DNA from: Lentibacillus persicus
Lineage (GTDB): Bacteria; Bacillota; Bacilli; Bacillales; Amphibacillaceae
Direction: 5' to 3'
Assembly: GCF_900112705.1 (NCBI RefSeq)
Contig: NZ_FOMR01000007.1
Span: 62,001 to 126,000 of the forward strand
Length of the DNA: 64,000 nt
Positions 3,570-37,212 of this stretch are shown here, in pieces; positions within the stretch are counted from its first letter, which is position 1; each line of letters begins with the position of its first letter. Made by a program: the position numbers and the translations under genes. Below the pieces are notes generated by a model, which worked only from the letters and a program-made list of their open reading frames with translations, was not told where the DNA came from and did no database searches.

Positions 3570-3780
3570 AGCGCCACTCCCTGTAAAATTTTTCGATGAC
3601 TTATGCACTGAATATTCTATCTATTAGTTTAATTCAGATAATATGATATAGCAAGAGAGAAAATGCGGAACTTCTCGCATAGTTGTTATAACTGCTACGT
3701 ACCAAATGTAAAGTGCGACACAGTGACAGCATTGATTTGCGCTAAGGACAGTCGCTTTTCACAGACCCCCGTGAACCTCT

Positions 3781-3980
3781 GTTTTCGGCCAGATGTTTCT
3801 GTTTCCCGCCCATGTTTCGGCTTTACGGCTCATGTTTCTGTTCTCCGGCACATATTTCGGTTCTCCGGCCCATATTATGGCTCTCCGGCACATATTTCGG
3901 TTCTCCGGCCCATATTCCGGCTCTCCGGCACATATTCCGGCTCTCCGGCACATATTTCGGCTCTCTGGCACATGTTTACT
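3781..3980. repeat. Tandem array of ten degenerate 20-bp units
   Basis: Ten consecutive 20-base units in perfect phase, with consensus near CTCTCCGGCACATATTTCGG. The central seven copies differ by one to four bases and the outer three are more decayed. The gap is otherwise gene-free. Open frames through it exist on both strands, but the unit is not a multiple of three and none has a ribosome site, so I treat it as non-coding. It is one of four 20-21 bp arrays in the window. Confidence 0.85.
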
Positions 3981-15438: not shown

Positions 15439-15729
15439 TTAATTCAACAGTCTATTCAGCATCACACTATGCTCACCGTACATCCTTGAAAGAAAGTTTA
15501 TGTCATTCTCAATCGCAACCATTCTTTCTTCCATTTTATCCATGCGTTGTTCGAAACCATCCATGCGTGTCTCCAAACCGTCCATGCGTGTCTCCAAACC
15601 ATTCATCCGCTGTTCCAGCCCATTCATTCTCAATTCAAGCTTGTCTATTCGCCCATTTACAGCCGAGAATGCTTCATGCATCTCTTTAAATCCTTGCTGA
15701 ACAATTCCAGCCAGTTCATTTAAATCCAT
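15439..15729 (-). CDS. Small heptad-repeat coiled-coil protein
   Basis: A 96-residue protein made largely of a predicted coiled coil. From about residue 33 the heptad MNGLEQR/MDGLETR/MDGFEQR/MDKMEER repeats six times, with matching 21-bp DNA repeats. The N-terminal MDLNELAGIVQQGFKEMHEA is amphipathic helix, and the tail NDINFLSRMYGEH continues the heptads. It probably forms a trimer or longer bundle. Similar short proteins occur in Bacillaceae without known function. AAAGGGCGG lies before the ATG at 15729. The 21-bp repeats make copy-number change by slippage likely. Confidence 0.72.
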   Translation of the reverse strand: MDLNELAGIVQQGFKEMHEAFSAVNGRIDKLELRMNGLEQRMNGLETRMDGLETRMDGFEQRMDKMEERMVAIENDINFLSRMYGEHSVMLNRLLN

Positions 15730-15935
15730 CCAAATCACCGCCCTTTGCACTTTAATAAAATTATACCACAGGGCAGGCAAACTGGTTAAATGACTAAAAA
15801 TTAGTTTTACTTTATATTTTTTCACAAAATGGTCTACAAAACAATGGAATATTCGTTTTCATAAACTTTTCTCCTTTTAGAAATCAGCGATGCCATATCA
15901 TCATACAATTTCAGCCAATTTTCACACACGCAAAT

Positions 15936-19649: not shown

Positions 19650-19680
19650 TCAATGAGTTGACTGGATCGAGATGAGTAAG

Positions 19681-19892
19681 TATCAACACATGACTGGAGT
19701 TATCGACAGAAGAATGAATATATCGACACATGAGCTAAGTTATCGACAGAAGAATGAATTTATCAACACATGAGCGAAGATATCGACAGAAGAATGAGTA
19801 TATCAACACATGAGCGAAGATATCGACAGAAGAATGAGTATATCAACACATGAGCGAAGATATCGACAGAAGAATGAGTATATCAACACATG
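19681..19892. repeat. Tandem array of 20-bp units in two alternating types
   Basis: Eleven units of exactly 20 bases alternate between TATCAACACATGAGCGAAGA and TATCGACAGAAGAATGAGTA, giving a 40-bp higher-order repeat. The last three pairs are identical, whereas the first copies have diverged. The array fills the gap between the converging gltS-like and BCCT genes and shows no ribosome site or plausible reading frame. Confidence 0.9.
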
Positions 19893-23978: not shown

Positions 23979-24284
23979 TCACTTGATCTCTTTAAACAGT
24001 TCATAAGCTTTGGCTCGTGCTTCGTTCAACACTTCATCACCCTTGTCTGTTATGCGGTAATATTTTCTTACCTTGCCACTGACATTCACGTCTTTTCTCG
24101 CGAGCAGTTCATCTTCCTGCATACCATGCAGTATTGGGTAAAGCGTTCCGGCACTTATTTCGTATCCGTGACTGCGCAGTTCATCAAGCATCCACGATCC
24201 ATAAATCGGCTCTTCTTTGGCATGGTGAAGAATGTGAATATGGATAAATCCCAGAAAAAGTTTCCGTAATACTTTATTATCCAC
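23979..24284 (-). CDS. PadR-family transcriptional regulator
   Basis: A 101-residue winged-helix repressor of the PadR subfamily. The DNA-reading helix lies in GYEISAGTLYPILHGMQED, and the wing in KVRKYYRITDKGDEVL. The start is GTG with AGGAGGGGG upstream. A perfect 9-bp inverted repeat overlaps its own promoter start site. As the first gene of an operon with chrA it probably represses both and responds to chromate or oxidative stress; the ligand is inferred only from context. Confidence 0.85.
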   Translation of the reverse strand: MDNKVLRKLFLGFIHIHILHHAKEEPIYGSWMLDELRSHGYEISAGTLYPILHGMQEDELLARKDVNVSGKVRKYYRITDKGDEVLNEARAKAYELFKEIK

Positions 24285-24308
24285 TAGCCCCCTCCTTCAT
24301 AATCGGAA

Positions 24309-24333
24309 TTCAATATCGGAATTCGATATTGAA
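24309..24333. promoter_or_regulatory. Palindromic operator for the PadR regulator
   Basis: TTCAATATC and GATATTGAA are perfect inverted repeats around a 7-base spacer, located three bases downstream of the -10 box and covering the expected transcription start of the padR-chrA operon. Confidence 0.7.
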
Positions 24334-24336
24334 TTT

Positions 24337-24365
24337 ATCTTAAATGATTTTAATTATTAATACAA
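24337..24365 (-). promoter_or_regulatory. Sigma-A promoter of padR-chrA
   Basis: TTGTAT (24360-24365) and TAAGAT (24337-24342) with a 17-base spacer, just upstream of the palindrome. Confidence 0.65.
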
Positions 24366-24447
24366 GTTAAATGTATGTAAATTGCTCGGGTACACATTTT
24401 GGTCCATTCGCATACACTGGGCATAAAACCAGAAGAAGGTGAAGCAA

Positions 24448-25068
24448 ATGCCGAAACCAATGCCCGTTTGTATTGTGCCGAATCAGATTACCGGCGGACC
24501 GGGGAAAAATGTAGTCTACCCACGGGCTTACGCGATGCCTGATGAAGGAATGGAGCAGTTTATCAACCAGCAAATTGTTTTTGAAACACAGCAGCTGATT
24601 GATCAACAATCAGGCGAAATGCCATCCCCTCTCATCGAAATGGATGGGTCTTTTGAAATTAAAAACAATCAGCGTGACGTTCTAAGCCTGTCACTATCAA
24701 ACTATGCTTATCACTACCAGGCGGCTCATGGCATGACTTACATTCAATCGTTAACATTTGATCTTGAAAAACGAAAGCGATGTAACCTGAGTGATTTATT
24801 CAAGGCAGGAAGCAATTATGCAGAACGGCTGACAGAACTCGTTAATGCACAAATTAAGCGGCGGGATATTCAGACTTTCGAGGAGAGCGTTGAAGTACAG
24901 CCTGAGCAGGATTTTTACATTGCTGACAAAACGCTCGTCATCTATTTTCAGCTATACGCCATAACACCATACGTGTTCGGTTTTCCAATGTTCCCCATCT
25001 CCGTTTATGACATTCAGGATATTATCGATGAGGAGGGACCGCTCGGCCGTATGGCGGTTAATAACTGA
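24448..25068 (+). CDS. DUF3298/DUF4163-domain protein
   Basis: A 206-residue protein of the PdaC/RsiV-like fold. An N-terminal part (about 25-110, YPRAYAMPDEGMEQFINQQI) matches DUF4163, and a C-terminal DUF3298 part reads FTFDLEKRKRCNLSDLFKAG-like and LVIYFQLYAITPYVFGFPMF. Unlike RsiV or PdaC it has no signal peptide or membrane span. It begins directly with MPKPMPVCIVPNQITGGPG, so it seems cytosolic; that is odd for the family. Similar stand-alone proteins occur in Bacillaceae. GAAGGTG lies before the ATG at 24448. A tandem-repeat array follows the stop codon. Confidence 0.72.
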   Translation: MPKPMPVCIVPNQITGGPGKNVVYPRAYAMPDEGMEQFINQQIVFETQQLIDQQSGEMPSPLIEMDGSFEIKNNQRDVLSLSLSNYAYHYQAAHGMTYIQSLTFDLEKRKRCNLSDLFKAGSNYAERLTELVNAQIKRRDIQTFEESVEVQPEQDFYIADKTLVIYFQLYAITPYVFGFPMFPISVYDIQDIIDEEGPLGRMAVNN

Positions 25069-25088
25069 CATTAAGAATAATGGAAATT

Positions 25089-25236
25089 TGCGCTGTAGAT
25101 TAACGTGTTATCGCTGTAATCTACAGCGCTCCGCTGCAGACTAATCTGGAATCGCTGTAGATTATGCAAAAATCGCTATAGACAAGCCCCTGATCGCTGT
25201 AGTTTAAGCCACAATCGCTGTAGACTCCCCAAAAAG
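25089..25236. repeat. Tandem array of seven 21-bp units, CGCTGTAG family
   Basis: Seven copies of a unit starting TCGCTGTAG begin at 25091, 25112, 25132, 25153, 25174, 25195 and 25216, spaced 21, 20, 21, 21, 21 and 21 bases. The second unit is a near palindrome, CGCTGTAATCTACAGCG. The remainder of each unit varies. It lies between two genes on the plus strand with no open frame of its own. The same motif and spacing recur at 36.1 kb. Confidence 0.88.
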
Positions 25237-25343
25237 TGCTTTAAAAGCTCATCAGATTTTCCTCGTAATAAACGCCAACCCGATGCCCTTTCCATGTTAT
25301 ACTAATAAAGATTATTAGAATTTTTGAACAGGAGTATCGACAG

Positions 25344-26294
25344 ATGGTTTATTTTAAATTTAATCATGACATTATAAACAATAAAGACTTGCCATCGTTT
25401 TCCCTTACCATTGATGATACAGTGGCAACTTCGATCTATAGTGACATCGATATGCAGTCTGAACTTGTCACCGCCCTTCGCAGTGACCACCGAATTACCA
25501 TATTTGATCAGCAGGAAGGGTTATACAAACGCCTGACAATCGAAGCCAATCTCGCTTTCTATCACAAATGGTTCAATTGCCAAACACCTTTGCCTGAAAT
25601 TGTGGTGCTGTTTGAACTGCAGAGCGTAGCCCGCACACCGCTTCACAAATGTTCGGATTCAGAGCTGCGCCGGGTTTATTTTGCCAAGTACTATATGAGC
25701 GGGGTTGCTCCGGTCGTCTTTCGGGAACCGATTCATGGTGTCGATGTCCGAACAGTTAAGACATTCCAGAACATGCTTCAGAAACTTAAAGAAGATGGGC
25801 GCCCTGCGCTGGTGCTCGTATCCAATATGGAACATGCGATGCTAGTGAGTGATTCAGCATACAAGCTTCAGGCAAGCGGACTGCATACAATCGAAATTGA
25901 TGAAGATAATGAAAAAAATTCAGATACAGGACAATCTGACGTAACGATGAATGCAAATTTATTTAAAATCCCGGCGAAAGTTGACGACAAGATGATTTTA
26001 TTTGACCCGCCTGAAATCGACTACATAGAAAGTCAGGATGGTAAAGCCATGCTGGTCATTAACAATGAAACATACGCCATGGATGCAACGCTTGCAGAAA
26101 TTGAAAAGAAACTTGAAATTTACGGGTTCTACCGTTGTCACAGATCCTATATCGTTAACTTACAGAAAGTGCGTGAAATCATTACATGGTCGAAAAACAC
26201 CTACTCCCTTAAAGTTGACAATAAGATTCAGTCGACCATTCCGCTTTCCCGGACCAAAATTCAGGACATTCAGGAAAAATTCAGCCTGAAATAA
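25344..26294 (+). CDS. LytTR regulator with degenerate ABC-ATPase-like N-terminal domain
   Basis: A 316-residue protein. The C-terminal 100 residues form a LytTR DNA-binding domain (IDYIESQDGKAMLVINNETY, YRCHRSYIVNLQKVREI, IPLSRTKIQDI). The N-terminal 190 residues follow the order of an ABC ATPase without its catalytic residues. There is no Walker A; SDSELRRVYFAKYY stands where the signature helix would be, PVVFREPIHGVDVRTVKTF at Walker B/D-loop, and LVLVSNMEHAMLVSD at the H-loop. It is probably a non-hydrolytic sensor or partner-binding module. The gene directly precedes an ABC ATPase/permease operon that has LytTR-like boxes in its promoter. AGGAG lies ten bases before the ATG. Confidence 0.8.
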   Translation: MVYFKFNHDIINNKDLPSFSLTIDDTVATSIYSDIDMQSELVTALRSDHRITIFDQQEGLYKRLTIEANLAFYHKWFNCQTPLPEIVVLFELQSVARTPLHKCSDSELRRVYFAKYYMSGVAPVVFREPIHGVDVRTVKTFQNMLQKLKEDGRPALVLVSNMEHAMLVSDSAYKLQASGLHTIEIDEDNEKNSDTGQSDVTMNANLFKIPAKVDDKMILFDPPEIDYIESQDGKAMLVINNETYAMDATLAEIEKKLEIYGFYRCHRSYIVNLQKVREIITWSKNTYSLKVDNKIQSTIPLSRTKIQDIQEKFSLK

Positions 26295-26296
26295 GT

Positions 26297-26390
26297 ACAG
26301 TTCAGCAAAAATGCATGACGAACACGTTTTTCAGAACACCTTTTTCACCATTTTATCGGTACATTTCAGCTTTCTGAGGGTACATTCCGT
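26297..26390 (+). promoter_or_regulatory. LytTR-type binding boxes upstream of the ABC operon
   Basis: ACAGTTCAG (26297-26305), ACATTTCAG (26361-26369) and ACATTCCGT (26382-26390) resemble the ACAGTTAAG-type half-sites of AgrA-like LytTR proteins. The last two are spaced 21 bases apart, two helical turns, and lie just upstream of TTGACT at 26397. Binding is inferred. Confidence 0.5.
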
Positions 26391-26458
26391 TCAAATTTGA
26401 CTGCAGCACCTCCCTTTTCAAGCTATGATTGAAGCAGTTAAGCAAAGGAGGTTTCCAG

Positions 26459-27307
26459 TTGGAAAATGCAATTGAGGTACAAGGAATGCAGAAAGTTTTC
26501 GGTCAAAACACAGCGATTAATCACGTCAGTTTTAATGTGAAAAAGGGGGAAATTTTTGGGCTGCTCGGTCCAAGCGGCTCAGGTAAGACGACAACGATTA
26601 AAATTTTAACAGGTGAACTCGGTCCGACAGCCGGGAAGGTAAACGTTCTCGGTTATAACACGAACCAATTAAAAACATCTGCTTTTAAATCGAAAATCGG
26701 TATTCTGTCAGACAACAGCTCGCTCTATGAACGACTTACGGTTTATGACAACCTGAAATTATTTTGTAAATTATATGGTGCACCACTCAAGGAAATCGAT
26801 AGGATTCTGCGTGATGTAAATCTTGAAAATGATCGAAAGAAGACCGTCTCGAAACTGTCAAAAGGTATGAAGCAACGCGTCCTGCTCGCCAAGGCGCTTA
26901 TTCATAAGCCTGACCTGGTGTTTCTCGACGAACCGACTTCTGCGCTGGATCCGGCCAGCATGGCGCAGGTGCATCGCGGGCTGCAGAGACTGAATGAATC
27001 GGGGACAACGATATTTGTAACGACCCATGACATGGAAGAAGCGACCGTTTTATGCGACCGGGTAGCATTTTTGAATTATGGTGACATTCAGGAAGCCGAT
27101 AGCCCTGCAGCATTACGCTACAAGTACTCAACACATGCTTTTCATGTCGAAACGTTTGCCGGTGACCGGCTCGTCATTGAAAATACCCCCAAGAATGGCG
27201 AACAGCTGAAAGAATTGATTGAAACCGGGCAAGTTAAAATGATGCATACAGACAATCCAACGCTTGGTCAGATCTTTTTAAAGGTCACCGGAAAGGAGCT
27301 CGTATGA
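26459..27307 (+). CDS. ABC transporter ATP-binding protein
   Basis: A 282-residue ATPase with Walker A GPSGSGKTTT, Q-loop region SDNSSLYERLTVYDNL, signature LSKGMKQRVLLAK, Walker B LVFLDEPTSALDP and H-loop TTHDMEEA. A C-terminal extension of about 60 residues is typical of CcmA/YhaQ-like ATPases. It powers the permease encoded by the overlapping next gene. The start is TTG at 26459 with GGAGG seven bases upstream. The cargo is unknown. The LytTR regulator gene 165 bases upstream probably controls it. Confidence 0.85.
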   Translation: MENAIEVQGMQKVFGQNTAINHVSFNVKKGEIFGLLGPSGSGKTTTIKILTGELGPTAGKVNVLGYNTNQLKTSAFKSKIGILSDNSSLYERLTVYDNLKLFCKLYGAPLKEIDRILRDVNLENDRKKTVSKLSKGMKQRVLLAKALIHKPDLVFLDEPTSALDPASMAQVHRGLQRLNESGTTIFVTTHDMEEATVLCDRVAFLNYGDIQEADSPAALRYKYSTHAFHVETFAGDRLVIENTPKNGEQLKELIETGQVKMMHTDNPTLGQIFLKVTGKELV

Positions 27308-28002
27308 TGAACGTTCAGCGAATTAATGCCATTTTTGAAAAAGACATAAAAGACTTCATGAAAAACATGATGCTCTTAATGATGCCACTGATCCCAATCG
27401 TGCTGGCTCTAATATACACCAGAATCAGCGATGGTGAAAGCCTCCCTATTTTCTTGATTTATCTGGTGGTCGGGGTTACGTTCTCCGCCGTCACATCCAG
27501 TAGTATGATGACCATGATGGCTGAAGAAAATGAGAAGAAAACGTTGCGCGGCCTGATGTTATCACCTGCTTCTTTTCTGGATATCATTATTGGAAAAAGC
27601 CTTGTTACCGGCCTGATCACGTTCACAGCGCTTATCATCTCTTTAGCAATTATGGGGATTGACCCATTTTTGAATATCAAAGCCATCATCGCCTTAATAT
27701 TATTATTTTTGTTCTTTCTTTTTCTGGGAATCGGCATCGGGCTCTTTTCAAAATCAATCGCAGCTACGTCGGCTTATTTAATGCCTGTCATGTTCTTGTT
27801 CGGTTTCACTCCGATGGTCGACTCGTTCGGTTTGGCAGAGGATGGCATCGCCATGGCCGTGTTTGAAACCTTCCCGATTATGCAGGCGATTGAATTGCAT
27901 GACGGCAATTCCTGGCTGCCGCTTGGCGTGATTTTTATTTGGGTAGCAGCAGCCGCTGTGTTTATGTATAGTTGTTTCAAAAAAACAAGGACAGATGATT
28001 AA
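27304..28002 (+). CDS. ABC-2-type permease
   Basis: A 232-residue membrane protein with six predicted spans, the partner of the ATPase whose stop codon overlaps its ATG (ATGA). The N-terminal INAIFEKDIKDFMKNMMLLM is the usual cytosolic coupling helix leading into span 1, and MMTMMAEENEKKTLRGLML is the conserved inter-span loop of ABC-2 exporters. Such pairs act in antibiotic or peptide export, or in resistance. Regulation by the upstream LytTR protein is inferred from the promoter boxes. Confidence 0.82.
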   Translation: MMNVQRINAIFEKDIKDFMKNMMLLMMPLIPIVLALIYTRISDGESLPIFLIYLVVGVTFSAVTSSSMMTMMAEENEKKTLRGLMLSPASFLDIIIGKSLVTGLITFTALIISLAIMGIDPFLNIKAIIALILLFLFFLFLGIGIGLFSKSIAATSAYLMPVMFLFGFTPMVDSFGLAEDGIAMAVFETFPIMQAIELHDGNSWLPLGVIFIWVAAAAVFMYSCFKKTRTDD

Positions 28003-28011
28003 CGAGGACAC

Positions 28012-28256
28012 AGAGGCTGGGGCAAAAGGTTTGAAAGTAAAGGAAAAGACGAACGATTATTAGGAAAGGAAGCGGGATACACCGCTCCGGAAATATGCTT
28101 CGCTTTCCGCGGGCGGCTGGTGAGCCAACTCGTGCCAAGGCACTTCGTTGACTCACCTATGCCTCTCTTCCCGCAGGAGTCTACGCATATTCCCTCCGCT
28201 AACCTTGATGATCGTTCGTCTTTTATATTGGATATATAAGTTATGTCCCAACCTCT
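28012..28256. repeat. MITE-like palindromic element, long form
   Basis: Outer arms AGAGGCTGGGGCA and TGTCCCAACCTCT pair imperfectly and end in TTATTTTTT, so the element also looks like a terminator for the ABC operon. Inside are perfect 14-bp inverted repeats AAAAGACGAACGAT (28044-28057) and ATCGTTCGTCTTTT (28211-28224). The core contains the CTTTCCGCGGGC ... CCCGCAGGAGTC hairpin seen in many Bacillaceae intergenic regions. No reading frame is supported. Confidence 0.75.
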
Positions 28257-28470
28257 TATTTTTTGTGCACCGGCACATGTTCCACCCTCCTGCCTGCCCC
28301 CTGAAGCAAAAGACACCTGTCTTTAACAAAATATCACAATTTCTTGACCTTTTTTTAACGAATGATTGACAGCTCACAAAAAAGGGAAACTCTCTACTAT
28401 GATTGTACATAGGTTAACACAACCTTCATGGTAAAAACGTATCTCCCACAGATTGCAGAGGTGTTATTTC

Positions 28471-29421
28471 ATGAGACATAGGATGAGACATCTGAACAAA
28501 TGGGCAATTTTTGGGCTCATTGGTCTTATATTATTGCTCAGCGGATGCAGTGAGCTGACTGTCATGGATCCTAAAGGCCCGGTAGCGGAAAGTCAACGGG
28601 ACTTAATTCTGTATGCACTGATATTCATGCTCGGGATTGTGGCTGTTGTCTTTTCCCTTTTCATCTTTATGGTCGTGAAGTACAGGGATAAGCCCAACCG
28701 GAAAGCTGAATATAAACCGGAGCTTCATGGCAACAAAGCTATTGAAACAATATGGACAATTGTGCCGGTTATGATCGTTACCGCATTGTCCATTCCAACC
28801 ATCAGCACGCTGTTTGATCTGGAAGAACCACCGGCATCGTCAAACGACCAGGACCCGCTTGTTATTCATGCAACGACGGCGGATTGGAAGTGGTTTTTCA
28901 GTTATCCCGAACAGGACATTGAAACGGTCAATTATTTGCACATCCCAACGGATCGCGCCATTGAATTCCGCTTGTCTTCAGCCGATTCGATGACAGCCTT
29001 ATGGATTCCTGCCTTAGGCGGCCAAAAGTACAACATGGCCGGCATGGAAAACATACTTTACCTGCAGGCTGATGAAACAGGTGTTTATCAAGGGCGCAAT
29101 TCCAACTTTAATGGTGAAGGGTTTGCGGAACAGACGTTCAAAGTGCATGCCGAAAGCAGCAGTGATTTCCAGGACTGGGTGGCATCAACACAGAACTCGG
29201 CACCTGAATTGACACAGGAGAAATATGATTCGCTGCTGGAGCCGGGGCTTACCGACACGATGGCATTCTCATCTACCCATCTTGAGTGGGTCGACCATGG
29301 CACCAAAGATGGCATGACCTATTCCATTGAACGCCACCGTGAAGCATTTAACGAACAGCTGCATTTGAAAAACGGCAAAGATCATGAACATGGACCATCC
29401 GGGAAAGAAGGTGAACAATAA
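28471..29421 (+). CDS. qoxA: Cytochrome aa3/bo3-type quinol oxidase subunit II
   Basis: A 316-residue lipoprotein. The lipobox LLLSGC places the acylated cysteine at residue 26. Two membrane spans follow (about 47-70 and 90-112), then an extracellular cupredoxin domain. The copper-A ligand motif of cytochrome c oxidases is absent: the region reads GRNSNFNGEGFAEQTFKV, so the enzyme oxidises quinol, not cytochrome c. It is the first gene of qoxABCD; it overlaps qoxB by one base. AGAGGTG precedes the ATG at 28471. Confidence 0.9.
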   Translation: MRHRMRHLNKWAIFGLIGLILLLSGCSELTVMDPKGPVAESQRDLILYALIFMLGIVAVVFSLFIFMVVKYRDKPNRKAEYKPELHGNKAIETIWTIVPVMIVTALSIPTISTLFDLEEPPASSNDQDPLVIHATTADWKWFFSYPEQDIETVNYLHIPTDRAIEFRLSSADSMTALWIPALGGQKYNMAGMENILYLQADETGVYQGRNSNFNGEGFAEQTFKVHAESSSDFQDWVASTQNSAPELTQEKYDSLLEPGLTDTMAFSSTHLEWVDHGTKDGMTYSIERHREAFNEQLHLKNGKDHEHGPSGKEGEQ

Positions 29422-31355
29422 TGTCGCTTGATGAATTGCTCGTAACCGGCGAACCGCTTATATACGCCGGGATGGTCTCCATTGTACTCGTTACGGGGGC
29501 TATCATTTTCCTATTAACCTATTTTAAAAAATGGAAATGGCTCTGGCGTGAATGGCTGACGACCGTCGACCATAAAAAAATTGGTATCATGTATATCTTA
29601 AGCGCACTCGCCATGCTGTTCCGTGCCGGCACTGACGCACTGATGATCAGGACGCAGCTGGCTTTTCCGGATATGAATTTCCTGAATGCTCAGCATTACG
29701 ATGAAATTTTTACCACGCATGGAACCATTATGATATTTTTTATGGCAATGCCGTTCCTGATTGGTTTGATGAATATCGTTGTGCCACTCCAAATCGGGGC
29801 GCGTGACTTTGCCTTTCCATACTTGAACGCATTGAGCTTCTGGTCCTTTTTCTTCGGGGCGATGCTGTTCAACATTTCATTTGTTATCGGCGGCGCACCT
29901 GATGCGGGCTGGACCAGTTATACACCGCTCGCCGGTGATATCATGAGTGAAGGCCCCGGGCAAAACTTCTATCTGCTCGCACTGCAGCTATCAGGGATTG
30001 GAACACTTGCCACAGGCATTAATTTAATGGTGACAATACTGAAAATGCGTGCACCAGGCATGACCTTATTCAAAATGCCGATTTTTACCTGGTCAACGCT
30101 TATCACCATGTTTATTATCGTTTTTGCCTTTCCGATTCTGACCGTAGCGCTGGCACTTATGACCATCGACCGGATATTTGGTTCGCATTTCTTTACGCTT
30201 GCCGGTGAAGGCCTGCCAATGATGTGGGCGAACCTGTTCTGGATGTGGGGCCACCCGGAAGTTTATATCGTGATACTGCCGGCTTTCGGTATCTTTTCAG
30301 AGGTGATTGCAACATTTGCCAGAAAGCGATTATTCGGTTACAGCGTCATGGTCTGGTCAATTATCCTGATTGCCGGACTGAGTTTCCTTGTCTGGGTACA
30401 CCATTTCTTTACAATGGGCGCGGGAGCATTTGTCAATTCCGTATTCTCCGTGACAACGATGGCGATTGCGATCCCGACAGGCGTGAAAATATTCAATTGG
30501 CTGGCGACCTTATATAAATCCAGAATCAGAACAACCACCGCGATGATGTGGGCACTGGCATTTATACCAAGTTTTACAATTGGCGGTATAACAGGCGTAA
30601 TGCTTGGCATGGCTGCGGCCGATTATCAGTTCCACAATTCGTATTTTCTGATTGCACACTTCCATTACGTGCTGATTGCAGGCACCGTTTTCGGCTGTTT
30701 TGCCGGCCTTGTGTACTGGTATCCAAAAATGTTCGGACACAAGTTAAACGAACGAATCGGAAAATGGAGTTTTTGGCTGTTCGTCATTGGCTTTCACATC
30801 ACGTTCCTGCCGCAGTATTTTTTGGGACTCGACGGCATGCCACGAAGAGTGTTCCATATTGTTCCGGAGTGGTTTAATCTGAACGTGCTATCAACCATTG
30901 GTGCATTTGGCATGGGACTTGGTTTTGCCGTATTTGTCTATAACATTTACTACAGCTACCGGTACAGCCCGCGGGAGCAAAACGGTGATCCATGGGACGG
31001 CCGGACGCTTGAATGGGCAACACCAACACCGGTTCCGGAGTACAATTTTGCCGTCGTGCCGAATGTGACGTCACACGACGCATACTGGGATATGAAAGCA
31101 AAAGGCGAAACGGGCTATGATGAATCAAAAGTTGAACCAATTCATATGCCTAACAGCACAGGACAACCGTTTGTCATGTCAGCTATCATGTTCTTTGCCA
31201 GTTTTGCACTCGTTTTTGAATGGATTTGGCTGGCAGTTGCCGGACTGATTGCTGTACTCGTAACAATGGGTATGCGGTCATTTGACTATAATGAAGGGCA
31301 TCACATCAGCGCAGATGAAATCAAGCGGACCGAGCGCTCGGCAAGGGGGTTATAG
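29421..31355 (+). CDS. qoxB: Quinol oxidase subunit I
   Basis: A 644-residue haem-copper oxidase core subunit with about 14-15 spans. Haem and copper ligands are visible in FTTHGTIMIFF, WMWGHPEVYIVILP (His-Tyr crosslink region), WVHHFF and LIAHFHYVLIAGTVF. It reduces oxygen to water at the binuclear centre and pumps protons. The length matches B. subtilis QoxB. Its start is translationally coupled to qoxA by a TAATG junction. Confidence 0.95.
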   Translation: MSLDELLVTGEPLIYAGMVSIVLVTGAIIFLLTYFKKWKWLWREWLTTVDHKKIGIMYILSALAMLFRAGTDALMIRTQLAFPDMNFLNAQHYDEIFTTHGTIMIFFMAMPFLIGLMNIVVPLQIGARDFAFPYLNALSFWSFFFGAMLFNISFVIGGAPDAGWTSYTPLAGDIMSEGPGQNFYLLALQLSGIGTLATGINLMVTILKMRAPGMTLFKMPIFTWSTLITMFIIVFAFPILTVALALMTIDRIFGSHFFTLAGEGLPMMWANLFWMWGHPEVYIVILPAFGIFSEVIATFARKRLFGYSVMVWSIILIAGLSFLVWVHHFFTMGAGAFVNSVFSVTTMAIAIPTGVKIFNWLATLYKSRIRTTTAMMWALAFIPSFTIGGITGVMLGMAAADYQFHNSYFLIAHFHYVLIAGTVFGCFAGLVYWYPKMFGHKLNERIGKWSFWLFVIGFHITFLPQYFLGLDGMPRRVFHIVPEWFNLNVLSTIGAFGMGLGFAVFVYNIYYSYRYSPREQNGDPWDGRTLEWATPTPVPEYNFAVVPNVTSHDAYWDMKAKGETGYDESKVEPIHMPNSTGQPFVMSAIMFFASFALVFEWIWLAVAGLIAVLVTMGMRSFDYNEGHHISADEIKRTERSARGL

Positions 31356-31356
31356 C

Positions 31357-31965
31357 ATGAATGCCTATAAAGAAGAAAACGCCACACCGCTGGAATATCA
31401 GACCGAAGAAAACCAGATGACGATTGTTGGCTTTTGGATCTTTCTCGCAGCTGAAATGGCACTGTTCGGCACATTATTTGCCACCTATGCTGTGCTGTTC
31501 GGCCGCACAGCGGAGGCCCCGCCCCCTGCTGAGTTATTTACAGCCGGAACAACACTGATCATGACGCTTCTTCTGCTCACAAGCAGTTTCACAAGCGGCA
31601 TTGCCATTCATGAAATGCGGCGCGGGGCACAAAAAGGCATGATGACATGGCTCATCATTACACTCGTTCTCGGTTTAAGCTTCCTTGGCTTTGAAATTTA
31701 TGAGTTTTATCATTATGCCACGTTGGGTGCAACGCTTACATCCAGTGCCTACTGGTCAGCATTCTTTGTCCTGGCAGGCACACACGGCGTGCACGTGACA
31801 TTTGGGATTGGCTGGTTGATCCTGCTTTTAATTCAACTCAAGCAGCGGGGGATCACGCAGGTAACAAGCCGAAAAATTTTCGTCCTTGGATTATACTGGC
31901 ACTTTTTAGATGTCATCTGGATATTCATTTTTACAGGTGTTTACTTGATAGGGATGGTGATTTAA
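31357..31965 (+). CDS. qoxC: Quinol oxidase subunit III
   Basis: A 202-residue protein with five predicted spans; TLGATLTSSAYWSAFFVLAG and GTHGVHVTFGIGW are typical of subunit III (CyoC/QoxC). It stabilises subunit I and supports proton uptake. AAGGGGG lies eight bases before the ATG at 31357, and an earlier in-frame ATG lies inside qoxB and is not used. The start is one base past the qoxB stop codon. Confidence 0.92.
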   Translation: MNAYKEENATPLEYQTEENQMTIVGFWIFLAAEMALFGTLFATYAVLFGRTAEAPPPAELFTAGTTLIMTLLLLTSSFTSGIAIHEMRRGAQKGMMTWLIITLVLGLSFLGFEIYEFYHYATLGATLTSSAYWSAFFVLAGTHGVHVTFGIGWLILLLIQLKQRGITQVTSRKIFVLGLYWHFLDVIWIFIFTGVYLIGMVI

Positions 31966-31966
31966 T

Positions 31967-32263
31967 ATGGCAAATCAATCGAAAAATATTCCGGTCAAGC
32001 ACATTATAGGATATGTGACGTCAGTTGTTCTGACGCTTGTCGCAGCATGGGCAGCGCTTGGATCCAATTTGCCGGTCATGTGGATCATTATTTCGATCTT
32101 CGCACTGGCGATTCTCCAGGCAGTCATTCAGCTCTTTTTGTTCATGCACTTGACTGAACGGGGAATGGGCCACGCACCCTGGAATATGATGTTCCACGGT
32201 GCCGTCGTATTCGCCATCCTTATTGCCGGCTCCCTGTTTACCATGTCATTCGGCTTTATGTAA
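31967..32263 (+). CDS. qoxD: Quinol oxidase subunit IV
   Basis: A 98-residue protein with three spans, containing QLFLFMHLTERGMGHAPWN, the conserved loop of CyoD/QoxD. It is the last gene of the oxidase operon, one base after qoxC, and a strong terminator follows. It assists assembly of the copper site. Confidence 0.9.
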   Translation: MANQSKNIPVKHIIGYVTSVVLTLVAAWAALGSNLPVMWIIISIFALAILQAVIQLFLFMHLTERGMGHAPWNMMFHGAVVFAILIAGSLFTMSFGFM

Positions 32264-32286
32264 AAATGAATAGCATCGTTAATAGC

Positions 32287-32321
32287 AAAAAAACCTCTTT
32301 CCGTTCTGGAAAGAGGTTTTT
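32287..32321. terminator. Bidirectional terminator after qoxD
   Basis: AAAACCTCTTTCC and GGAAAGAGGTTTT form a perfect 13-bp stem with a five-base loop, flanked by A and T runs. It lies between qoxD and a converging small gene. Confidence 0.9.
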
Positions 32322-32604
32322 ATATGCGTTTACCGGTCAGCCCTCTGTACGTTTCTGATGTGTTAACCATGTTAATGATGAACATCACCCATCCGACTGC
32401 TGATAAAAACAGGCTTGCATAAAACATCAGCCATGTTATCGAAAATGCGCCAGGTACGACTGACATGAACATCACCTGAATAAAGTAAAGCCACATGCCG
32501 ATCAGCAGAATGGTCTGCACTGCAGCAAGGGATTTCTTCTTTAAATACAGGAAAATAAATGGCGTGACCGTACCCAAAACCATAAACATCAATGTGATAG
32601 CCAT
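32320..32604 (-). CDS. Small membrane protein, 94 residues
   Basis: Three hydrophobic segments (about 2-20, 27-50 and 57-80) with a positively charged YLKKKSLA loop and a short polar tail (NTSETYRGLTGKRI). The family is not recognised; its position next to the oxidase operon may be chance because the gene is convergent. TAGGAG precedes the ATG by about nine bases. Confidence 0.65.
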   Translation of the reverse strand: MAITLMFMVLGTVTPFIFLYLKKKSLAAVQTILLIGMWLYFIQVMFMSVVPGAFSITWLMFYASLFLSAVGWVMFIINMVNTSETYRGLTGKRI

Positions 32605-32810
32605 TTATATCATCTCCTATCTTTAATGAAAGCGTATTCTTATTATAACAGATTGTTCGCCGTTTTGTCACACAATCGTCACAAATTAGGCTCAAGTGCT
32701 GTATAACCGCTCTGAGAAGGAAGAGATTGTTTCATTATCAGCGTTCCCGTTATACTCAATGGAAAAACTTATGCCAGATTCAGTTGGATTAATTTTTCAC
32801 GGCTTAATAT

Positions 32811-33296
32811 TCAATCGAAAAATTTGAGTTCTGCGTGGATTACTTCGGTGAGATTGAGGATCGCAAATGAATAATATGGGAGCGCCCGTTTAGCTGTCGG
32901 GGAACCCGGGTTAACAAGCAGCTGTTTTTTAAAATAACGAATCATCGGAATGTGCGAATGACCGAAAATGATAACATCGGGATGATCTTCAGTAAATGCT
33001 TCGATTGCGCGCTTTTCCGTTGTCTTCTTCGCACCGTGACCATGAACGACACCGATCCTGAATTTACCGATATCGAGCAGTTGTGTCCCCGGGAGCCGCC
33101 CTCGAATTGCTTCATCATCAACATTGCCATATACGCCGGTCACTTCACCATATTGGGAGAGCTCATCTAAGACATCCACCGATTGCCAGTCACCCGTATG
33201 GATAATCCGATCAGCCGCCGAACACGCTTCCGTCAAACGAGCCGGCAGTTTCTCCGCTTTCTTCAAATGCGTATCGCCAGTCACAACCATTCTCAT
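32811..33296 (-). CDS. YfcE/MJ0936-family metallophosphodiesterase
   Basis: A 161-residue calcineurin-like phosphoesterase. The metal-binding motifs are GDTHL, HTGDW, YGNVD, VVHGHG and FGHSHIP, in the usual order. B. subtilis YsnB is the close namesake. Members hydrolyse phosphodiesters with Mn2+; the cellular substrate is unknown. AGGACGGGGTGTAACTT precedes the ATG. It starts 24 bases after a large membrane protein gene on the same strand and may be co-transcribed with it. Confidence 0.85.
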   Translation of the reverse strand: MRMVVTGDTHLKKAEKLPARLTEACSAADRIIHTGDWQSVDVLDELSQYGEVTGVYGNVDDEAIRGRLPGTQLLDIGKFRIGVVHGHGAKKTTEKRAIEAFTEDHPDVIIFGHSHIPMIRYFKKQLLVNPGSPTAKRALPYYSFAILNLTEVIHAELKFFD

Positions 33297-33320
33297 AAGT
33301 TACACCCCGTCCTCTCCTCA

Positions 33321-34748
33321 CTACACCATCGACTGGACATAAACTTGCACGAGTACGTACAGAACGATGGCGAATTTGTAGTTGAATTTCAGACCGTTTT
33401 TAAATGGGCTTACACCGTTTGCTGCGCTTAATACAATGACCGGCATGATCAGTGGTGAAAGCAATATGGAGATTGCACTGCCGGACGTGACGGCCAGAAC
33501 AATCAGTTCAGGCGGATATGGCAGCGAAATGCTTTCCAAAATACCAGCAACGAGAACCATGACAGTCAGCGGTCCCAGCCCCATGAATCCTAGAATAATA
33601 AGTATAAGCGGCAAAAAGTAAAGCATATTAAAGAAAGGCAGCACTTCCTGAAACGCATAAACACCATCAATAATCACTGTGCCGATGCCGGTCTGATTCA
33701 AGCTGTGTATCATGACACCGGCCGATGTCAGCACACTGAATTGGTATGCTTTGCTTGCCAGCCCGCTCCGGTAATATTCTTTCACCTCATGTCCAAGCCG
33801 TCCAATGCGTTTCTTAACGAGAAAATAAATACCTGCCCATATGACAATAACAATCGGAATCAAAATCATCAGCCCAAAATCAGTCACTTCATACATAAAA
33901 AAAATCGAGCCGAACAGTGTAATGAACAAAAAGCCGAATTCTATTGTCCGGCGTTTTTGTATTTTCGGGTTTGAAGCGTGCTTAAGCACAACCGCTATCT
34001 CACTTTTAATGGCAGCCGTCACATCAATGCCGTATTTCTTTTCTTCAAAATAAGAAAAAACGACCGCAATCAAAAGGCCCGCCAAAGCGATTATAAACCC
34101 TTGCAAAATGGCTATCGGCAACGACGCGTTCATTGCTTCGACCGCATAAGCAAAACTCGGAATGCTGATGACCCACAACGTTGACAAGGCAAACGACCGC
34201 AATAAAGCCGTGCCTTTAAAGTGTTCCCACGCCTCTCCGCGCTGATTTTTCAAAATGTCATCCACAAACTGATACATCATCGGAATCGCACCGAACAACA
34301 GAAAATATGAAATAATATGCGTAAATGACAGGACGCCGAAATAAAACTTGCGGCTTGTGTCGAGCCAATTATGTGCAAACCCGATAATATCCTCAATGTA
34401 GGGCTCCGATCGCAGGACCCAACCGATGACGGGAACGACCGCAAGCAGGCCGATGATATTACTCATCTGTCGCAAGCCGATCGCCATGTTTTCCAGAAAC
34501 GGGCCACCTGAAACGAGCATGATGAGGAAACCTGTGCTAAACAGAAACAATGGCAATTTAATATGACGAACGTTTACATGCACAACAGCCAAAACGAGCA
34601 GCATAAACCCGAGTATGGCGTGCACCGTCACCAGAATGCTGTTATCCACGAAAAATGTTATGAAATAAAGCAGTGCATATAAAGCTATAACGACCCGCAA
34701 TCCGCGTGCGACTAAGTTCACGATAATGCGCTCCCTACGACGATTCAT
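33321..34748 (-). CDS. Uncharacterised polytopic membrane protein, 475 residues
   Basis: About 11-12 hydrophobic segments are spread over the whole length, with basic loops (RRRERIIVN at the N-terminus, FEEKKYGID, KKRIGRLGHEV). The last third, LPYPPELIVLAVTSGSAIS then LLSPLIMPVIVLSAANG, resembles the re-entrant loop regions of ion-transporter (IT) superfamily carriers, so a transport role is possible. No family could be named. GAGGAG precedes the ATG. It is divergent from the Na+/H+ antiporter gene and shares that promoter region. Confidence 0.65.
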   Translation of the reverse strand: MNRRRERIIVNLVARGLRVVIALYALLYFITFFVDNSILVTVHAILGFMLLVLAVVHVNVRHIKLPLFLFSTGFLIMLVSGGPFLENMAIGLRQMSNIIGLLAVVPVIGWVLRSEPYIEDIIGFAHNWLDTSRKFYFGVLSFTHIISYFLLFGAIPMMYQFVDDILKNQRGEAWEHFKGTALLRSFALSTLWVISIPSFAYAVEAMNASLPIAILQGFIIALAGLLIAVVFSYFEEKKYGIDVTAAIKSEIAVVLKHASNPKIQKRRTIEFGFLFITLFGSIFFMYEVTDFGLMILIPIVIVIWAGIYFLVKKRIGRLGHEVKEYYRSGLASKAYQFSVLTSAGVMIHSLNQTGIGTVIIDGVYAFQEVLPFFNMLYFLPLILIILGFMGLGPLTVMVLVAGILESISLPYPPELIVLAVTSGSAISILLSPLIMPVIVLSAANGVSPFKNGLKFNYKFAIVLYVLVQVYVQSMV

Positions 34749-34861
34749 TTACTCCTCATTTTAAGCCTCTTCAGGGCAAAAAGACAATAGGATGCTCCTA
34801 CGTTTATAATTTTGCAACAGGGGTACCGCGCTTAAGAATACCTGTACAAGGAGAATAAGTC

Positions 34862-36049
34862 ATGGCTTCATCCCAAATTATTTTACTTTTACTGATTGGT
34901 TATCTTATCTTCACTTTGGATAAAAAACAGAGCTATTTGCCGGTGCCCGTTTTATTGGTCGTACTTGGGCTCGGTTTGTCCTTTATCCCTTATTTTTCGT
35001 CCGTCGACGTGACTGCCAAGATGATTTATCATGTTTTCCTGCCGGCAATTCTGTTCACGTCCGCTTATAACTTCTCGTCGGACAATTTTAAGAAAAACGC
35101 CGGGATTATCACCTTTCTGGCAACCGTCGGCATCATGGCCACCGTTGCCATTCTTGGTTCGGTAATATTTGCGGTGAGCGGTCCGTTCGTTTCACTGTCA
35201 TTCATTGGTGCGCTGGCTATTGCCTCAATTCTTACACCGACTGATCCCGTTTCAGTCGTGTCGATACTTGAGGAATCCGCCGGCAGCAAAAAAATCTCTG
35301 CCGTTGTGGAGGGTGAATCGCTGATCAATGACGGGACGAGTATTGTGATTTTTTCGTTTCTTGCCGGCATGCTCACGCAAAACCAATCGTTTACCGTCTC
35401 CAATTTTGTAACGAACTTCTTAGTTGTTTCAATCGGCGGCGCAGCACTTGGTTTGGCTTTCGGCTGGCTGATGAGCAAGGCGGTGCATTTCACCCACCAC
35501 CGGGAATACCAGGTAATGTTGAGTATTATCATTGCTTACGGTTCCTTCAATCTTGCTGAAGCAATCGGGGTCTCAGGCGTCCTTGCAACGGTTTCCGCCG
35601 GCATTATGCTGTCATTTGAGTACGGCCGGACGGTAAAAGAGGATCATTTCAAAGACACTTTGGACGGATTTTGGGGCATAGCTGAATTATCGCTCCTGTC
35701 ATTATTGTTTTTATTAATCGGCATTGAAGCGGCAAAATTTCTGCAATTTAACGCTTGGGGATTTGCATTTATTATTTTTGCACTGTCCTTAGCAGTCCGG
35801 TTTAGCATCATTATGGGCACGACACAGTTTTTCAAAGAATGGCGCCAACATATTAGCTGGCGTGAATCCGCCTTAATTTCATGGTCAGGCTTAAAAGGTT
35901 CGATGTCGGTTTATTTAATTCTGGAACTCCAGGCAAAAAGCTCCGGTAACAGTGATATGATCATCTCACTGGCGTTTTCCGCGGTGCTCATTTCGCTTGT
36001 CGTGCAAAGCCTCGGCGTCTCACCGCTTAGCAAGTGGCTTGCGAAGTGA
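34862..36049 (+). CDS. Cation:proton antiporter, CPA1 (NhaP-like)
   Basis: A 395-residue carrier with 12 predicted spans. The CPA1 motifs ILTPTDPVSVVSILEES and VVEGESLINDGTSIVIFSF hold the acidic residues of the ion site, and LISWSGLKGSMSVYLIL is the conserved span-11 segment. It probably exchanges Na+ or K+ for H+, which fits a halotolerant host. It lacks the long cytosolic tail of NhaP/NhaG. AAGGAG lies eight bases before the ATG. A 21-bp repeat array follows. Confidence 0.85.
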   Translation: MASSQIILLLLIGYLIFTLDKKQSYLPVPVLLVVLGLGLSFIPYFSSVDVTAKMIYHVFLPAILFTSAYNFSSDNFKKNAGIITFLATVGIMATVAILGSVIFAVSGPFVSLSFIGALAIASILTPTDPVSVVSILEESAGSKKISAVVEGESLINDGTSIVIFSFLAGMLTQNQSFTVSNFVTNFLVVSIGGAALGLAFGWLMSKAVHFTHHREYQVMLSIIIAYGSFNLAEAIGVSGVLATVSAGIMLSFEYGRTVKEDHFKDTLDGFWGIAELSLLSLLFLLIGIEAAKFLQFNAWGFAFIIFALSLAVRFSIIMGTTQFFKEWRQHISWRESALISWSGLKGSMSVYLILELQAKSSGNSDMIISLAFSAVLISLVVQSLGVSPLSKWLAK

Positions 36050-36095
36050 TGGCTACTGACGTACGCGCATCATTAATTGTTAAAATTTGGAATTA

Positions 36096-36238
36096 TGCGC
36101 TGTAGATACTGGCAAAATCGCTGTAGTCTATAGCGCATCGCTGTAGTTTGGCTGATTATCGCTGTAGATCACCCTGAAATCGCTGTAGTTTGAACGGTAA
36201 TCGCTGTAGATGCCCGCAAAATCGCTGTAGTTTAAAAA
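36096..36238. repeat. Tandem array of seven 21-bp units, CGCTGTAG family
   Basis: Unit starts (CGCTGTAG) lie at 36098, 36119, 36139, 36160, 36181, 36202 and 36223, giving the same 21, 20, 21, 21, 21, 21 spacing as the array at 25.1 kb. The second unit is again palindromic, CGCTGTAGTCTATAGCG. The variable halves differ between the two loci. It lies between converging genes. Confidence 0.88.
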
Positions 36239-36279
36239 TTCACCGCCCCGTCCCATAGCCGGGTCAACGCGTCCCGCAT

Positions 36280-37212
36280 CTACTGCTCATTTTTCTTCCG
36301 TCGTCTGATGAGCCAAAAAACTGCAAAACCAAGCAGCGCTAAAATCAACAGCACCGGTGAACTCCCTGCTAAAAATACAACCAGTCCCGAAACCGCTGAG
36401 CGCAGAAAATTAATACTTTGCATAAACTGCTGCTTTGTTTTTTCCCACGTGTTTAAATCGTCTTCGTTTGAAAGCGATACGTTATTTTCTTCAATGTAAA
36501 TTGTGACTGTCGCCAGGTCGACCTTGTTGTCCAAATAATTCATCCGCCCCGTTATTTCTTCAATCTCCTGCTGCACCGTCGCCAGGTCATCTGAGATCTC
36601 CAACAGATCTTCTGTCTTCTCGGCCTGCTCCATAAATGACTGCAGCCGCTCTTCCACGACCTGTTTCGACTCAAGCCGTGACTCCAGATCAACGTATTCC
36701 TCTGTCACATCCCGGCCCGAGGTTGAACTTTCCAGCACACGATTGCTGCTGTCTTCCACGGTCTGCACAAACACCTCGAATTCTTCTTGCGGCACACGCA
36801 CTGTCACTTGTCCGGTCGTCGTTCGGTCCTCATTGCCTTCACGCATATTTGATTCAACTATGTAACCGCCGCGGTCGGTAACCTCGGCGTTAATACCTTC
36901 CACCGTCGCTTGATAATCCTTCACCTCAATACGAAGATTCGCCGTATATATAATTTTCCGGTCTGAATCGGTCATTTCTTTTGCCTCCGAAGTTGTATCA
37001 CCTTCACTTTGGCCACTCGCTGCTTCTTCGGACGACTCGGACGCCTGTCTGTCAGCCGGACTCTCGGAGGTCTGGCTGTTTTCCGTCGTGAATTGTTCGG
37101 TCTCGACATTTGCCTGATCAGAAGATTGATCGCTATTTTCTGTATCATTACTGCAAGCTGCCACGATTACGCCAAAAACTATTATCGTCAAATATAAAAA
37201 ACTTTTTCGCAT
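36280..37212 (-). CDS. DUF4349-domain lipoprotein
   Basis: A 310-residue surface protein. The lipobox VAAC puts the acylated cysteine at residue 20, followed by about 60 residues of Ser/Glu/Gln-rich linker. The DUF4349 region (about 80-265) has KIIYTANLRIEVKDYQATVE, TVRVPQEEF and a coiled coil ending in TIYIEEN. A C-terminal span (about 280-300) is followed by RRRKKNEQ. Such proteins are membrane-tethered at both ends; their role is unknown. The ATG at 37212 follows AAAGGCGGG. Confidence 0.8.
   Translation of the reverse strand: MRKSFLYLTIIVFGVIVAACSNDTENSDQSSDQANVETEQFTTENSQTSESPADRQASESSEEAASGQSEGDTTSEAKEMTDSDRKIIYTANLRIEVKDYQATVEGINAEVTDRGGYIVESNMREGNEDRTTTGQVTVRVPQEEFEVFVQTVEDSSNRVLESSTSGRDVTEEYVDLESRLESKQVVEERLQSFMEQAEKTEDLLEISDDLATVQQEIEEITGRMNYLDNKVDLATVTIYIEENNVSLSNEDDLNTWEKTKQQFMQSINFLRSAVSGLVVFLAGSSPVLLILALLGFAVFWLIRRRKKNEQ

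What the first reader, a model, noticed from the sequence alone, without database searches (positions are those of the whole stretch)
25089..36238. Twin 21-bp repeat arrays with identical copy number and spacing at two distant loci
Arrays at 25089-25236 and 36096-36238 each have seven units led by CGCTGTAG, with intervals of 21, 20, 21, 21, 21 and 21. In both the second unit is a palindrome (CGCTGTA..TA(C/T)AGCG). The other half of each unit differs freely between loci. Conservation of architecture but not of filler argues for a constrained function (protein binding on one DNA face, or a structured RNA) or a shared dispersal mechanism.
Basis: seen in the sequence. Interest (0 to 1): 0.7.

Follow-up and report, generated by a model that had tools for sequence, protein, structure and literature searches.

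The report
Nuclease-linked repeat arrays scattered through genomes
The two matching repeat arrays belong to an apparently undescribed family of short DNA elements scattered between bacterial genes, and the same repeat brackets the gene for a nuclease-like DNA-binding protein, which looks like the partner that recognises and perhaps spreads it.

Summary
Both arrays have seven units with intervals 21,20,21,21,21,21 and a palindromic second unit. The same architecture occurs in 15 of 46 related arrays fetched from six Lentibacillus-group genomes. The unit is AATCGCTGTAGWTT plus about 7 free bases. The new finding is a partner gene. In this genome two such arrays bracket a gene for a NERD-nuclease/zinc-ribbon/winged-helix protein. 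Across the order, 68 of 72 genes of this NERD group that I read carry a 19-23-bp-period array within 600 bp, with many different cores. A sister NERD group gives 0 of 20, antiporter genes 2 of 30, shuffled flanks 0 of 216. Five core patterns (six gene-genome cases) were scanned and all were also found away from the gene. Orthologous NERD genes in one syntenic slot carry different cores. Best reading: an undescribed repeat/protein pair that works like REPIN-RAYT but uses a PD-(D/E)XK NERD protein. Recognition is well supported; NERD-driven spread is inferred. Against: five genomes hold CGCTRTAG arrays with no cognate NERD gene found, and no target duplication was seen.

The parts
25091..25223 (+). 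Array 1: seven units of the CGCTGTAG family, intervals 21,20,21,21,21,21
25112..25128 (+). Palindromic second unit of array 1 (7 of 7 paired arm positions around a 3-bp centre)
36098..36230 (+). Array 2: seven units of the CGCTGTAG family, same intervals
36119..36135 (+). Palindromic second unit of array 2 (6 of 7 paired arm positions)
19672..19892 (+). A different array of the same kind (20-bp period, core ATCRACAGAAG) whose core matches the arrays flanking another NERD gene of this genome (G000:C12:29437-30399, L163)
3778..3977 (+). A third array (20-bp period, units like GGCMCATATTYCGGCTCTCC); its core resembles, by eye, arrays beside NERD genes of relatives (L155, L161); no NERD gene with this core was seen in this genome among those read

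Best explanation
The arrays are dispersed, non-coding copies of the array that brackets a chromosomal NERD gene (G000:C11:160845-161816, outside the window). The encoded 324-aa protein has a PD-(D/E)XK-type NERD nuclease domain, a four-cysteine zinc ribbon and a C-terminal winged helix. Proposed working: the winged helix reads the roughly 11-14 bp core; sites repeat every 20-21 bp, about two DNA turns, so several protein molecules line up on one face; the palindromic unit would take two molecules head to head. The protein then promotes copying of the whole array (a fixed 7-unit element here, 5-unit in sister lineages) into other intergenic sites in trans, as a RAYT is thought to spread REPINs. 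Shown: linkage of gene and array, matching core of flanking and dispersed arrays, dispersal with fixed unit number, change of core between orthologous loci. Inferred: binding, nuclease activity, and the copying step.
For: (1) 68 of 72 NERD genes of this group have a 19-23 bp array within 600 bp (64 of 72 on the strict setting); sister NERD-ribbon-winged-helix group 0 of 20; antiporter loci 2 of 30, one being this window's own array; shuffled flanks 0 of 216. (2) Upstream and downstream arrays at one gene share the core in direct orientation at 32 of 33 loci where both could be compared. (3) Prediction test: NERD genes with cores CGCTGTAG (own genome), CGCTRTAG (G003), CGCTAAAG (G001) and CGCCARAT (G004) each have arrays of that core elsewhere in their own genome, while G001 and G004 have 0 CGCTRTAG pairs. 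Two unrelated cases agree: ATCRACAGAAG in the own genome (7 clusters besides the gene, my count) and GGCCCAAG in G024 (7 places besides the gene, my count; 0 hits in 13 other genomes). (4) The orthologous gene sits in one syntenic slot in G000, G004, V. subterraneus and V. litoralis (in G003 the ABC side was matched) with different cores. (5) Core similarity rises with NERD protein identity, Spearman 0.27, 0 of 300 permutations as high, 61 loci. (6) Fixed copy number: 15 of 46 arrays have the identical 7-unit spacing; sister-lineage arrays mostly have 5 units at 21 bp. (7) In the rows that I saw (its output was cut), similarity between arrays at unrelated loci mostly stops within about 26 bp of the array edges, while syntenic pairs align far beyond. 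(8) AlphaFold2 model, mean pLDDT 87.7, has nuclease, ribbon and winged helix; D83, K98, N99 and the four cysteines are invariant in 20 diverse members and E96 nearly so. (9) The 20-bp units carry the inverted half C/TAGCG in 21 of 28 cases against 1 of 179 21-bp units.
Against: Of the 7 genomes with CGCTRTAG pairs only G000 and G003 were found to have a NERD gene with that core. In the other five I read the flanks of 6 of 7 NERD matches in G007, 5 of 6 in G008, 3 of 5 in G011, 3 of 6 in G005 and 2 of 5 in G006; none has that core. G007 (Lentibacillus sp. CBA3610) still has 13 arrays, 6 of them 7-unit with the standard spacing; its syntenic slot holds an array and no such gene. G008 has CGCCARAT arrays, and no NERD gene with that core was seen. 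The cores are not wholly private: 5 other genomes of 12 also have one to three CGCTAAAG pairs (reversed control 6 in G000), and G007 has three small ATCRACAGAAG clusters. No target-site duplication or precise empty site was found. As far as I recall no transposase-type chemistry is known for NERD proteins, so the copying step is a guess. Core similarity correlates with the nuclease domain (0.27) as well as with the winged helix (0.25), so one search does not single out the reading domain. Arrays were found by core similarity, which biases core-versus-filler comparisons; the flanking pair in the own genome shows no difference (3 of 56 against 5 of 77).
Confidence: 0.6

Rival explanations
1. Host-function binding arrays: the NERD protein and its arrays form a chromosomal structural or regulatory system (nucleoid folding, segregation, repair or transcription boundary) kept by selection for the host; dispersal is slow and incidental.
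For: Helical-phase spacing; cores more conserved than filler in syntenic pairs (L047/L085: 5 of 56 core vs 24 of 77 filler differences; L043/L092: 0 of 24 vs 8 of 38); the gene is chromosomal and syntenic, with no close relative on plasmids or phages; arrays kept in genomes where no cognate gene was found.
Against: Sites are gained and lost: at site 1, of 9 other genomes read, 2 have arrays of 5 or so units, 1 a single relic unit, 6 show none; at site 2, of 5 other genomes with the antiporter orthologue, 2 keep two units, 2 none, and G004 has an array of a different core. The core differs between sister species together with the dispersed copies, hard for a host network of dozens of sites.
Confidence: 0.22
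2. Decoy or addiction system: the NERD nuclease is harmful when free and the arrays are cheap binding decoys that keep it bound, so that arrays accumulate.
For: Catalytic residues kept; up to 54 units beside some NERD genes; broken NERD genes with arrays kept (L156, L263).
Against: Genomes that hold arrays without the gene gain nothing from decoys; dispersal as a fixed 5- or 7-unit element is not predicted.
Confidence: 0.07
3. RNA element: arrays act in transcripts, downstream of genes, as a repeated RNA motif or hairpin.
For: The 5' neighbour lies on the array's strand in 25 of 30 resolved cases and 3 are divergent (16 unresolved; orthologous arrays counted more than once); array 1 folds with z -3.2.
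Against: Array 2 z -0.5, L089 array z +0.65; no Rfam match; 21-bp DNA phase; partner protein with a winged helix.
Confidence: 0.05
4. Independent tandem expansion of chance motifs, or coding heptads.
For: Some 21-bp repeats in the window look like coding heptads (15538-15606 in ORF 15439-15825). Long arrays beside other NERD genes show higher-order repeats typical of local expansion.
Against: Same core, same unit number and same odd 20-bp second interval at unrelated loci; core shared with arrays at a NERD gene.
Confidence: 0.02

Closest known systems
REPIN-RAYT (repetitive extragenic palindromes with REP-associated tyrosine transposases; PMC3116915, abstract and passages seen)
   Same: Short non-coding extragenic repeats dispersed in a chromosome; the same repeat flanks a cognate protein gene; more than one family per genome; gene and repeat diversify together
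   Different: Protein is a PD-(D/E)XK NERD nuclease-like protein with zinc ribbon and winged helix, not a Y1 transposase; repeats are direct tandem arrays of 20-21 bp units, not inverted doublets; Bacilli
STAR elements of Staphylococcus (PMC3532100, first part of the text and passages seen)
   Same: Intergenic dispersed direct repeats with conserved core and variable spacers, unit number changing, dispersal mechanism unknown, number not following phylogeny
   Different: Core TNTGTTGNGGCCC with 40-44 bp spacers, so a period above 50 bp; no cognate gene named in what I saw; whether a NERD gene accompanies STAR was not tested
Iteron arrays of plasmid origins and partition sites (recalled)
   Same: Direct repeats of about 20-22 bp on one DNA face near the gene of their binding protein
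   Different: Many chromosomal sites; the linked gene is NERD, not Rep or Par
CRISPR arrays (recalled)
   Same: Alternating constant and variable segments
   Different: Constant about 14 bp, variable about 7 bp; linked protein has no PADLOC match in the four members tried

Membership tests
REPIN-RAYT | Repeat dispersed in the chromosome and also flanking a cognate protein gene | tested here: met
REPIN-RAYT | Cognate protein is a Y1 (HUH) tyrosine transposase | tested here: not met
   Pfam gives only NERD PF08378 above cut-off in six members; model shows nuclease-like domain, ribbon and winged helix
REPIN-RAYT | Unit is an inverted doublet of REP palindromes | tested here: not met
   Direct tandem units with one palindromic unit
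REPIN-RAYT | Transposition or excision intermediates | not testable with these tools
   No reads or strain series
Classical IS/MITE | Terminal inverted repeats and target-site duplication | tested here: inconclusive
   None seen by eye at four similar G007 copies; no close empty site available
STAR element | Core TNTGTTGNGGCCC with about 40 bp spacers | tested here: not met
   Core CGCTGTAG, period 20-21
Iteron replicon | Adjacent replication initiator gene | tested here: not met
   Gene bracketed by the arrays is NERD, with no other Pfam family above cut-off
CRISPR | Repeats of about 23-50 bp with unique spacers of similar length (recalled) | tested here: not met
   21-bp units with a 14-bp constant and 7-bp free part; cas genes not searched for
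NERD domain family PF08378 | Profile match above the gathering score | tested here: met
   55.1 to 70.9 bits against 22.1 in six members
Known Rfam RNA | Covariance-model match | tested here: not met
   0 matches up to E 1 in window 24000-37000

The most novel reading that the evidence does not exclude
A previously undescribed class of genomic replicator in Bacilli: a chromosomal NERD nuclease with zinc ribbon and winged helix, bracketed by arrays of its own 20-21 bp site, spreads fixed-length arrays through intergenic DNA. Each genome carries several such pairs with unrelated cores, so the family is a natural library of co-evolving winged-helix/DNA specificity pairs and a convergent counterpart of REPIN-RAYT.
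Probability: 0.55. Interest if true: 0.88.

Novelty: categorically new. Interest (0 to 1): 0.8.

Why it matters
It would give a large set of unexplained 20-21 bp tandem repeats in Bacilli a partner gene, give one subgroup of NERD-domain proteins a concrete DNA target, and offer a second, unrelated instance of a repeat population living with a single-copy gene. Because orthologous genes at one locus carry different cores, the change of DNA specificity and its spread through a genome can be followed directly. It also predicts the binding site of scores of uncharacterised proteins.

Tried and rejected
RNA structure: rejected as the main reading because folding scores are inconsistent and Rfam has no match.

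Operator of neighbouring promoters: the second array and seven other resolved ones have the next gene converging on them, so a promoter role is not general.

Plasmid or phage origin: tblastn of the NERD protein found only 4 plasmid and 1 phage records with 22-26% identity, none covering 80% of it.

Transposon ends: looked by eye for terminal inverted repeats at four similar G007 copies and for empty sites in syntenic regions; none clear. The species are too far apart for exact boundaries.

A solved-structure sequence search gave only weak zinc-ribbon matches, E 0.19 or worse. Fold searches gave middling matches to restriction-type nucleases and winged helices; no specific relative is claimed.

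In-place core change: near one gene's 3' end G011 has CGCTGTAG units, G001 CGCTAAAG/CGCCAAAG units and G008 CGCCARAT units. At site 2 of the window, after the antiporter gene, G004 has a six-unit array of an unrelated core, GAAASTCGCGCG. Conversion in place or repeated insertion at the same spot: not decided.

Distant NERD matches: in the phylum sample, strict arrays were seen at 4 of 8 loci from three further genomes (L268, L279, L283, L285), weak ones at L269 and L280, none at L270 and L281; and at 0 of 7 partial matches from farther genomes (L271-L277).

Literature: the searches listed nothing that, by title, abstract start or the passages I opened, describes NERD genes with repeat arrays. 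The library lacks most subscription journals, so absence from print is not shown.

Rows dropped: the CGCTAAAG chains at L046 and L086 were left out of the CGCTGTAG counts. L151 had no intact NERD frame and L144, L156 and L217 are fragments, left out of the 72 and 20; L131 is the same locus as L205 and was counted once. The NERD loci read were mostly the best-scoring of the roughly 150 places, plus 20 low-scoring ones fetched as the sister group. The two NERD groups rest on a score gap, not on a tree.
Full report
Observation. Window arrays 25091-25223 and 36098-36230 each hold seven units with intervals 21,20,21,21,21,21 and a palindromic second unit. CGCTGTAG is exact in 4 of 7 and 7 of 7 units. 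The window lies at C11:62001-126000 of a 3.31 Mb, 23-contig genome.

Same family genome-wide. Exact pairs CGCTRTAG-N11-14-CGCTRTAG occur 40 times in the own genome, with 0 for the reversed control. In 40 genomes (the own one included) 7 have such pairs, all among the 12 genomes of the genus, and none of the 28 others; the reversed control hit 8 times in G007 and once each in four others. A chaining script over the fetched loci gave 48 arrays, two of them of another core; the same script gave 0 arrays in 1.07 Mb of shuffled sequence. Of the 46 CGCTGTAG-type arrays, 15 have the identical seven-unit spacing: 7 of 16 in the own genome, 6 of 13 in G007, 2 of 5 in G003, 0 of 12 in G005, G006 and G011 together. 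Over 175 21-bp units the conserved part is AATCGCTGTAGWTT with about seven freer bases. The inverted half C/TAGCG is present in 21 of 28 20-bp units and 1 of 179 21-bp units.

Core and site history. Syntenic arrays keep cores better than filler: L047/L085 5 of 56 against 24 of 77; L043/L092 0 of 24 against 8 of 38. Arrays were found by their cores, so this leans in favour; the two arrays bracketing the own NERD gene show no difference (3 of 56, 5 of 77). Site 1 of the window has 7 units here, about 5 in G011 and G005, a single relic unit in G006, and none seen in G001, G002, G003, G007, G008 and G012. Site 2 has 7 here, 2 in G011, 2 in G006, none in G007 and G008; in G004 the same spot, directly after the antiporter stop codon, holds a six-unit array of another core, GAAASTCGCGCG, with steps of 21 and 20. 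So units are lost, sites turn over, and unrelated array families use the same spot.

The partner. Two near-identical arrays of the own genome (C11:160701-160833 and 161914-162046) bracket a 324-aa gene whose product matches the NERD domain (E 1.2e-14). Its orthologue in G003 (68% identity) is also bracketed by two arrays. NERD relatives elsewhere were followed by arrays with other cores, which led to a systematic test. With nine-mers, one mismatch, at least three units, steps of 19-23 bp and 600 bp of flank (plus the last 60 bases of the gene), 68 of 72 genes of this NERD group have an array. On a strict setting (eight-mers, four units) 64 of 72 have one. A second NERD group, shorter (about 300 aa) but with a ribbon and a similar C-terminal part, has 0 of 20. 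Antiporter loci have 2 of 30, one of them this window's own array and the other the G004 array just named. Shuffled flanks have 0 of 216. The longest array seen has 54 units, and 32 of 33 comparable genes have the same core in the same direction on both sides. Cores differ widely, for example CGCTAAAG, CGCCARAT, ATCGATAAA, GGCCCAAG, TTAGACCGAAT, CCGATAGAACC, though related genes often share one such as AAGTTCACA. Related proteins have more similar cores (Spearman 0.27, 0 of 300 permutations, 61 loci).

Dispersal and the gene. I scanned five core patterns, six gene-genome cases. Own genome and G003, CGCTRTAG: found away from the gene in both. G001, CGCTAAAG: 19 pairs in 7 places, one the NERD gene, and 0 CGCTRTAG pairs. 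G004, CGCCARAT: 5 pairs in two places, one the NERD gene, and 0 CGCTRTAG pairs. Own genome, ATCRACAGAAG: seven clusters besides the NERD gene, one at window 19702-19872; three small clusters also in G007, none in G001 and G004. G024, GGCCCAAG: seven places besides the NERD gene, none in 13 other genomes. Five other genomes have one to three CGCTAAAG pairs, and the reversed control of that pattern hits 6 times in G000; G008 has three CGCCARAT pairs. Sister-lineage arrays mostly have 5 units at 21 bp, so a fixed unit number seems to be a property of the element in these lineages; more distant NERD genes have long, variable arrays.

One slot, several cores. The NERD orthologue lies between the same membrane gene (weakly YitT-like, below Pfam's cut-off) and ABC gene in G004, V. 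subterraneus and V. litoralis as in the own genome; in G003 the blast covered the ABC side only, and the G001 gene was not in this slot. The cores there are CGCTGTAG, CGCTRTAG, CGCCARAT and ATCGATAAA. The V. litoralis gene is broken. In G007 and G011 the slot holds an array but no trace of this NERD gene, as expected if the two direct arrays had recombined, or if the gene had never been there.

Against. G005, G006, G007, G008 and G011 carry CGCTRTAG pairs, and I found no NERD gene with that core in them, having read the flanks of 3 of 6, 2 of 5, 6 of 7, 5 of 6 and 3 of 5 NERD matches. G007 arrays are often intact and include similar copies (L087/L089, 87% over 138 bp), so the gene is not obviously needed for keeping arrays, or was lost lately. 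No insertion junction was seen.

Protein. AlphaFold2 with 11 sequences gives mean pLDDT 87.7: a NERD part, ribbon, then helix-strand-helix-helix-strand-strand, a winged helix (the other four models had means of 66-76). VIA-align rows point to restriction-type and cyclic-nucleotide-activated nucleases for residues 7-199 and winged helices for 268-323, all with Z of 8.5 or less, which can be common arrangement only. Invariant residues over 20 members include D83, K98, N99 and four cysteines; E96 is nearly invariant. No close relative on plasmids or phages and no PADLOC match in four members. In a phylum sample 11 of 299 genomes, the own one included, matched at E 1e-20; only three of the others are of the same class, with arrays at 4 of their 8 loci on a strict setting and at none of 7 partial matches from farther genomes.

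Conclusion. Recognition of the core by the linked protein is the reading that best explains linkage, matching cores and helical phase (my estimate 0.8). That the pair is a self-spreading system like REPIN-RAYT (PMC3116915, passages) is my best mechanism at 0.6, with the copying chemistry unknown. It is not a REPIN-RAYT, a STAR element (PMC3532100, passages), an iteron replicon or a CRISPR by the features tested.

Noticed in passing
window 15538-15606: 21-bp repeat inside an ORF (15439-15825, -) that looks like coding heptads, not an array of this kind.
   Followed up: partly
G000:C11:166435-167387 (L156), L263: NERD genes broken into two frames with an array still in place (own genome, core CGCTAAAGTTCACA; V. 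litoralis, core ATCGATAAA).
   Followed up: partly
L113, L133, L255, L138: The end of the NERD reading frame runs into its downstream array, so the C-terminal tail is partly encoded by array units.
   Followed up: no
L039, L078, L189, L201: One intergenic neighbourhood carries arrays with different cores in G000/G011, G001 and G008.
   Followed up: partly
L226: In G004 a six-unit array of core GAAASTCGCGCG lies directly after the antiporter stop codon, where the window has array 2; the cognate NERD gene was not sought.
   Followed up: partly
L182, site 1 of G007: Instead of an array, two copies of a roughly 115-bp GAAACTTCA...GTTACATGCGGG repeat lie upstream of the LytTR gene; another repeat, not identified.
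   Followed up: no
L285, L152: Two NERD loci whose upstream and downstream arrays are inverted relative to each other.
   Followed up: no
L202-L221, L132: A sister group of NERD-zinc-ribbon proteins (about 300 aa) without arrays; function unknown.
   Followed up: partly
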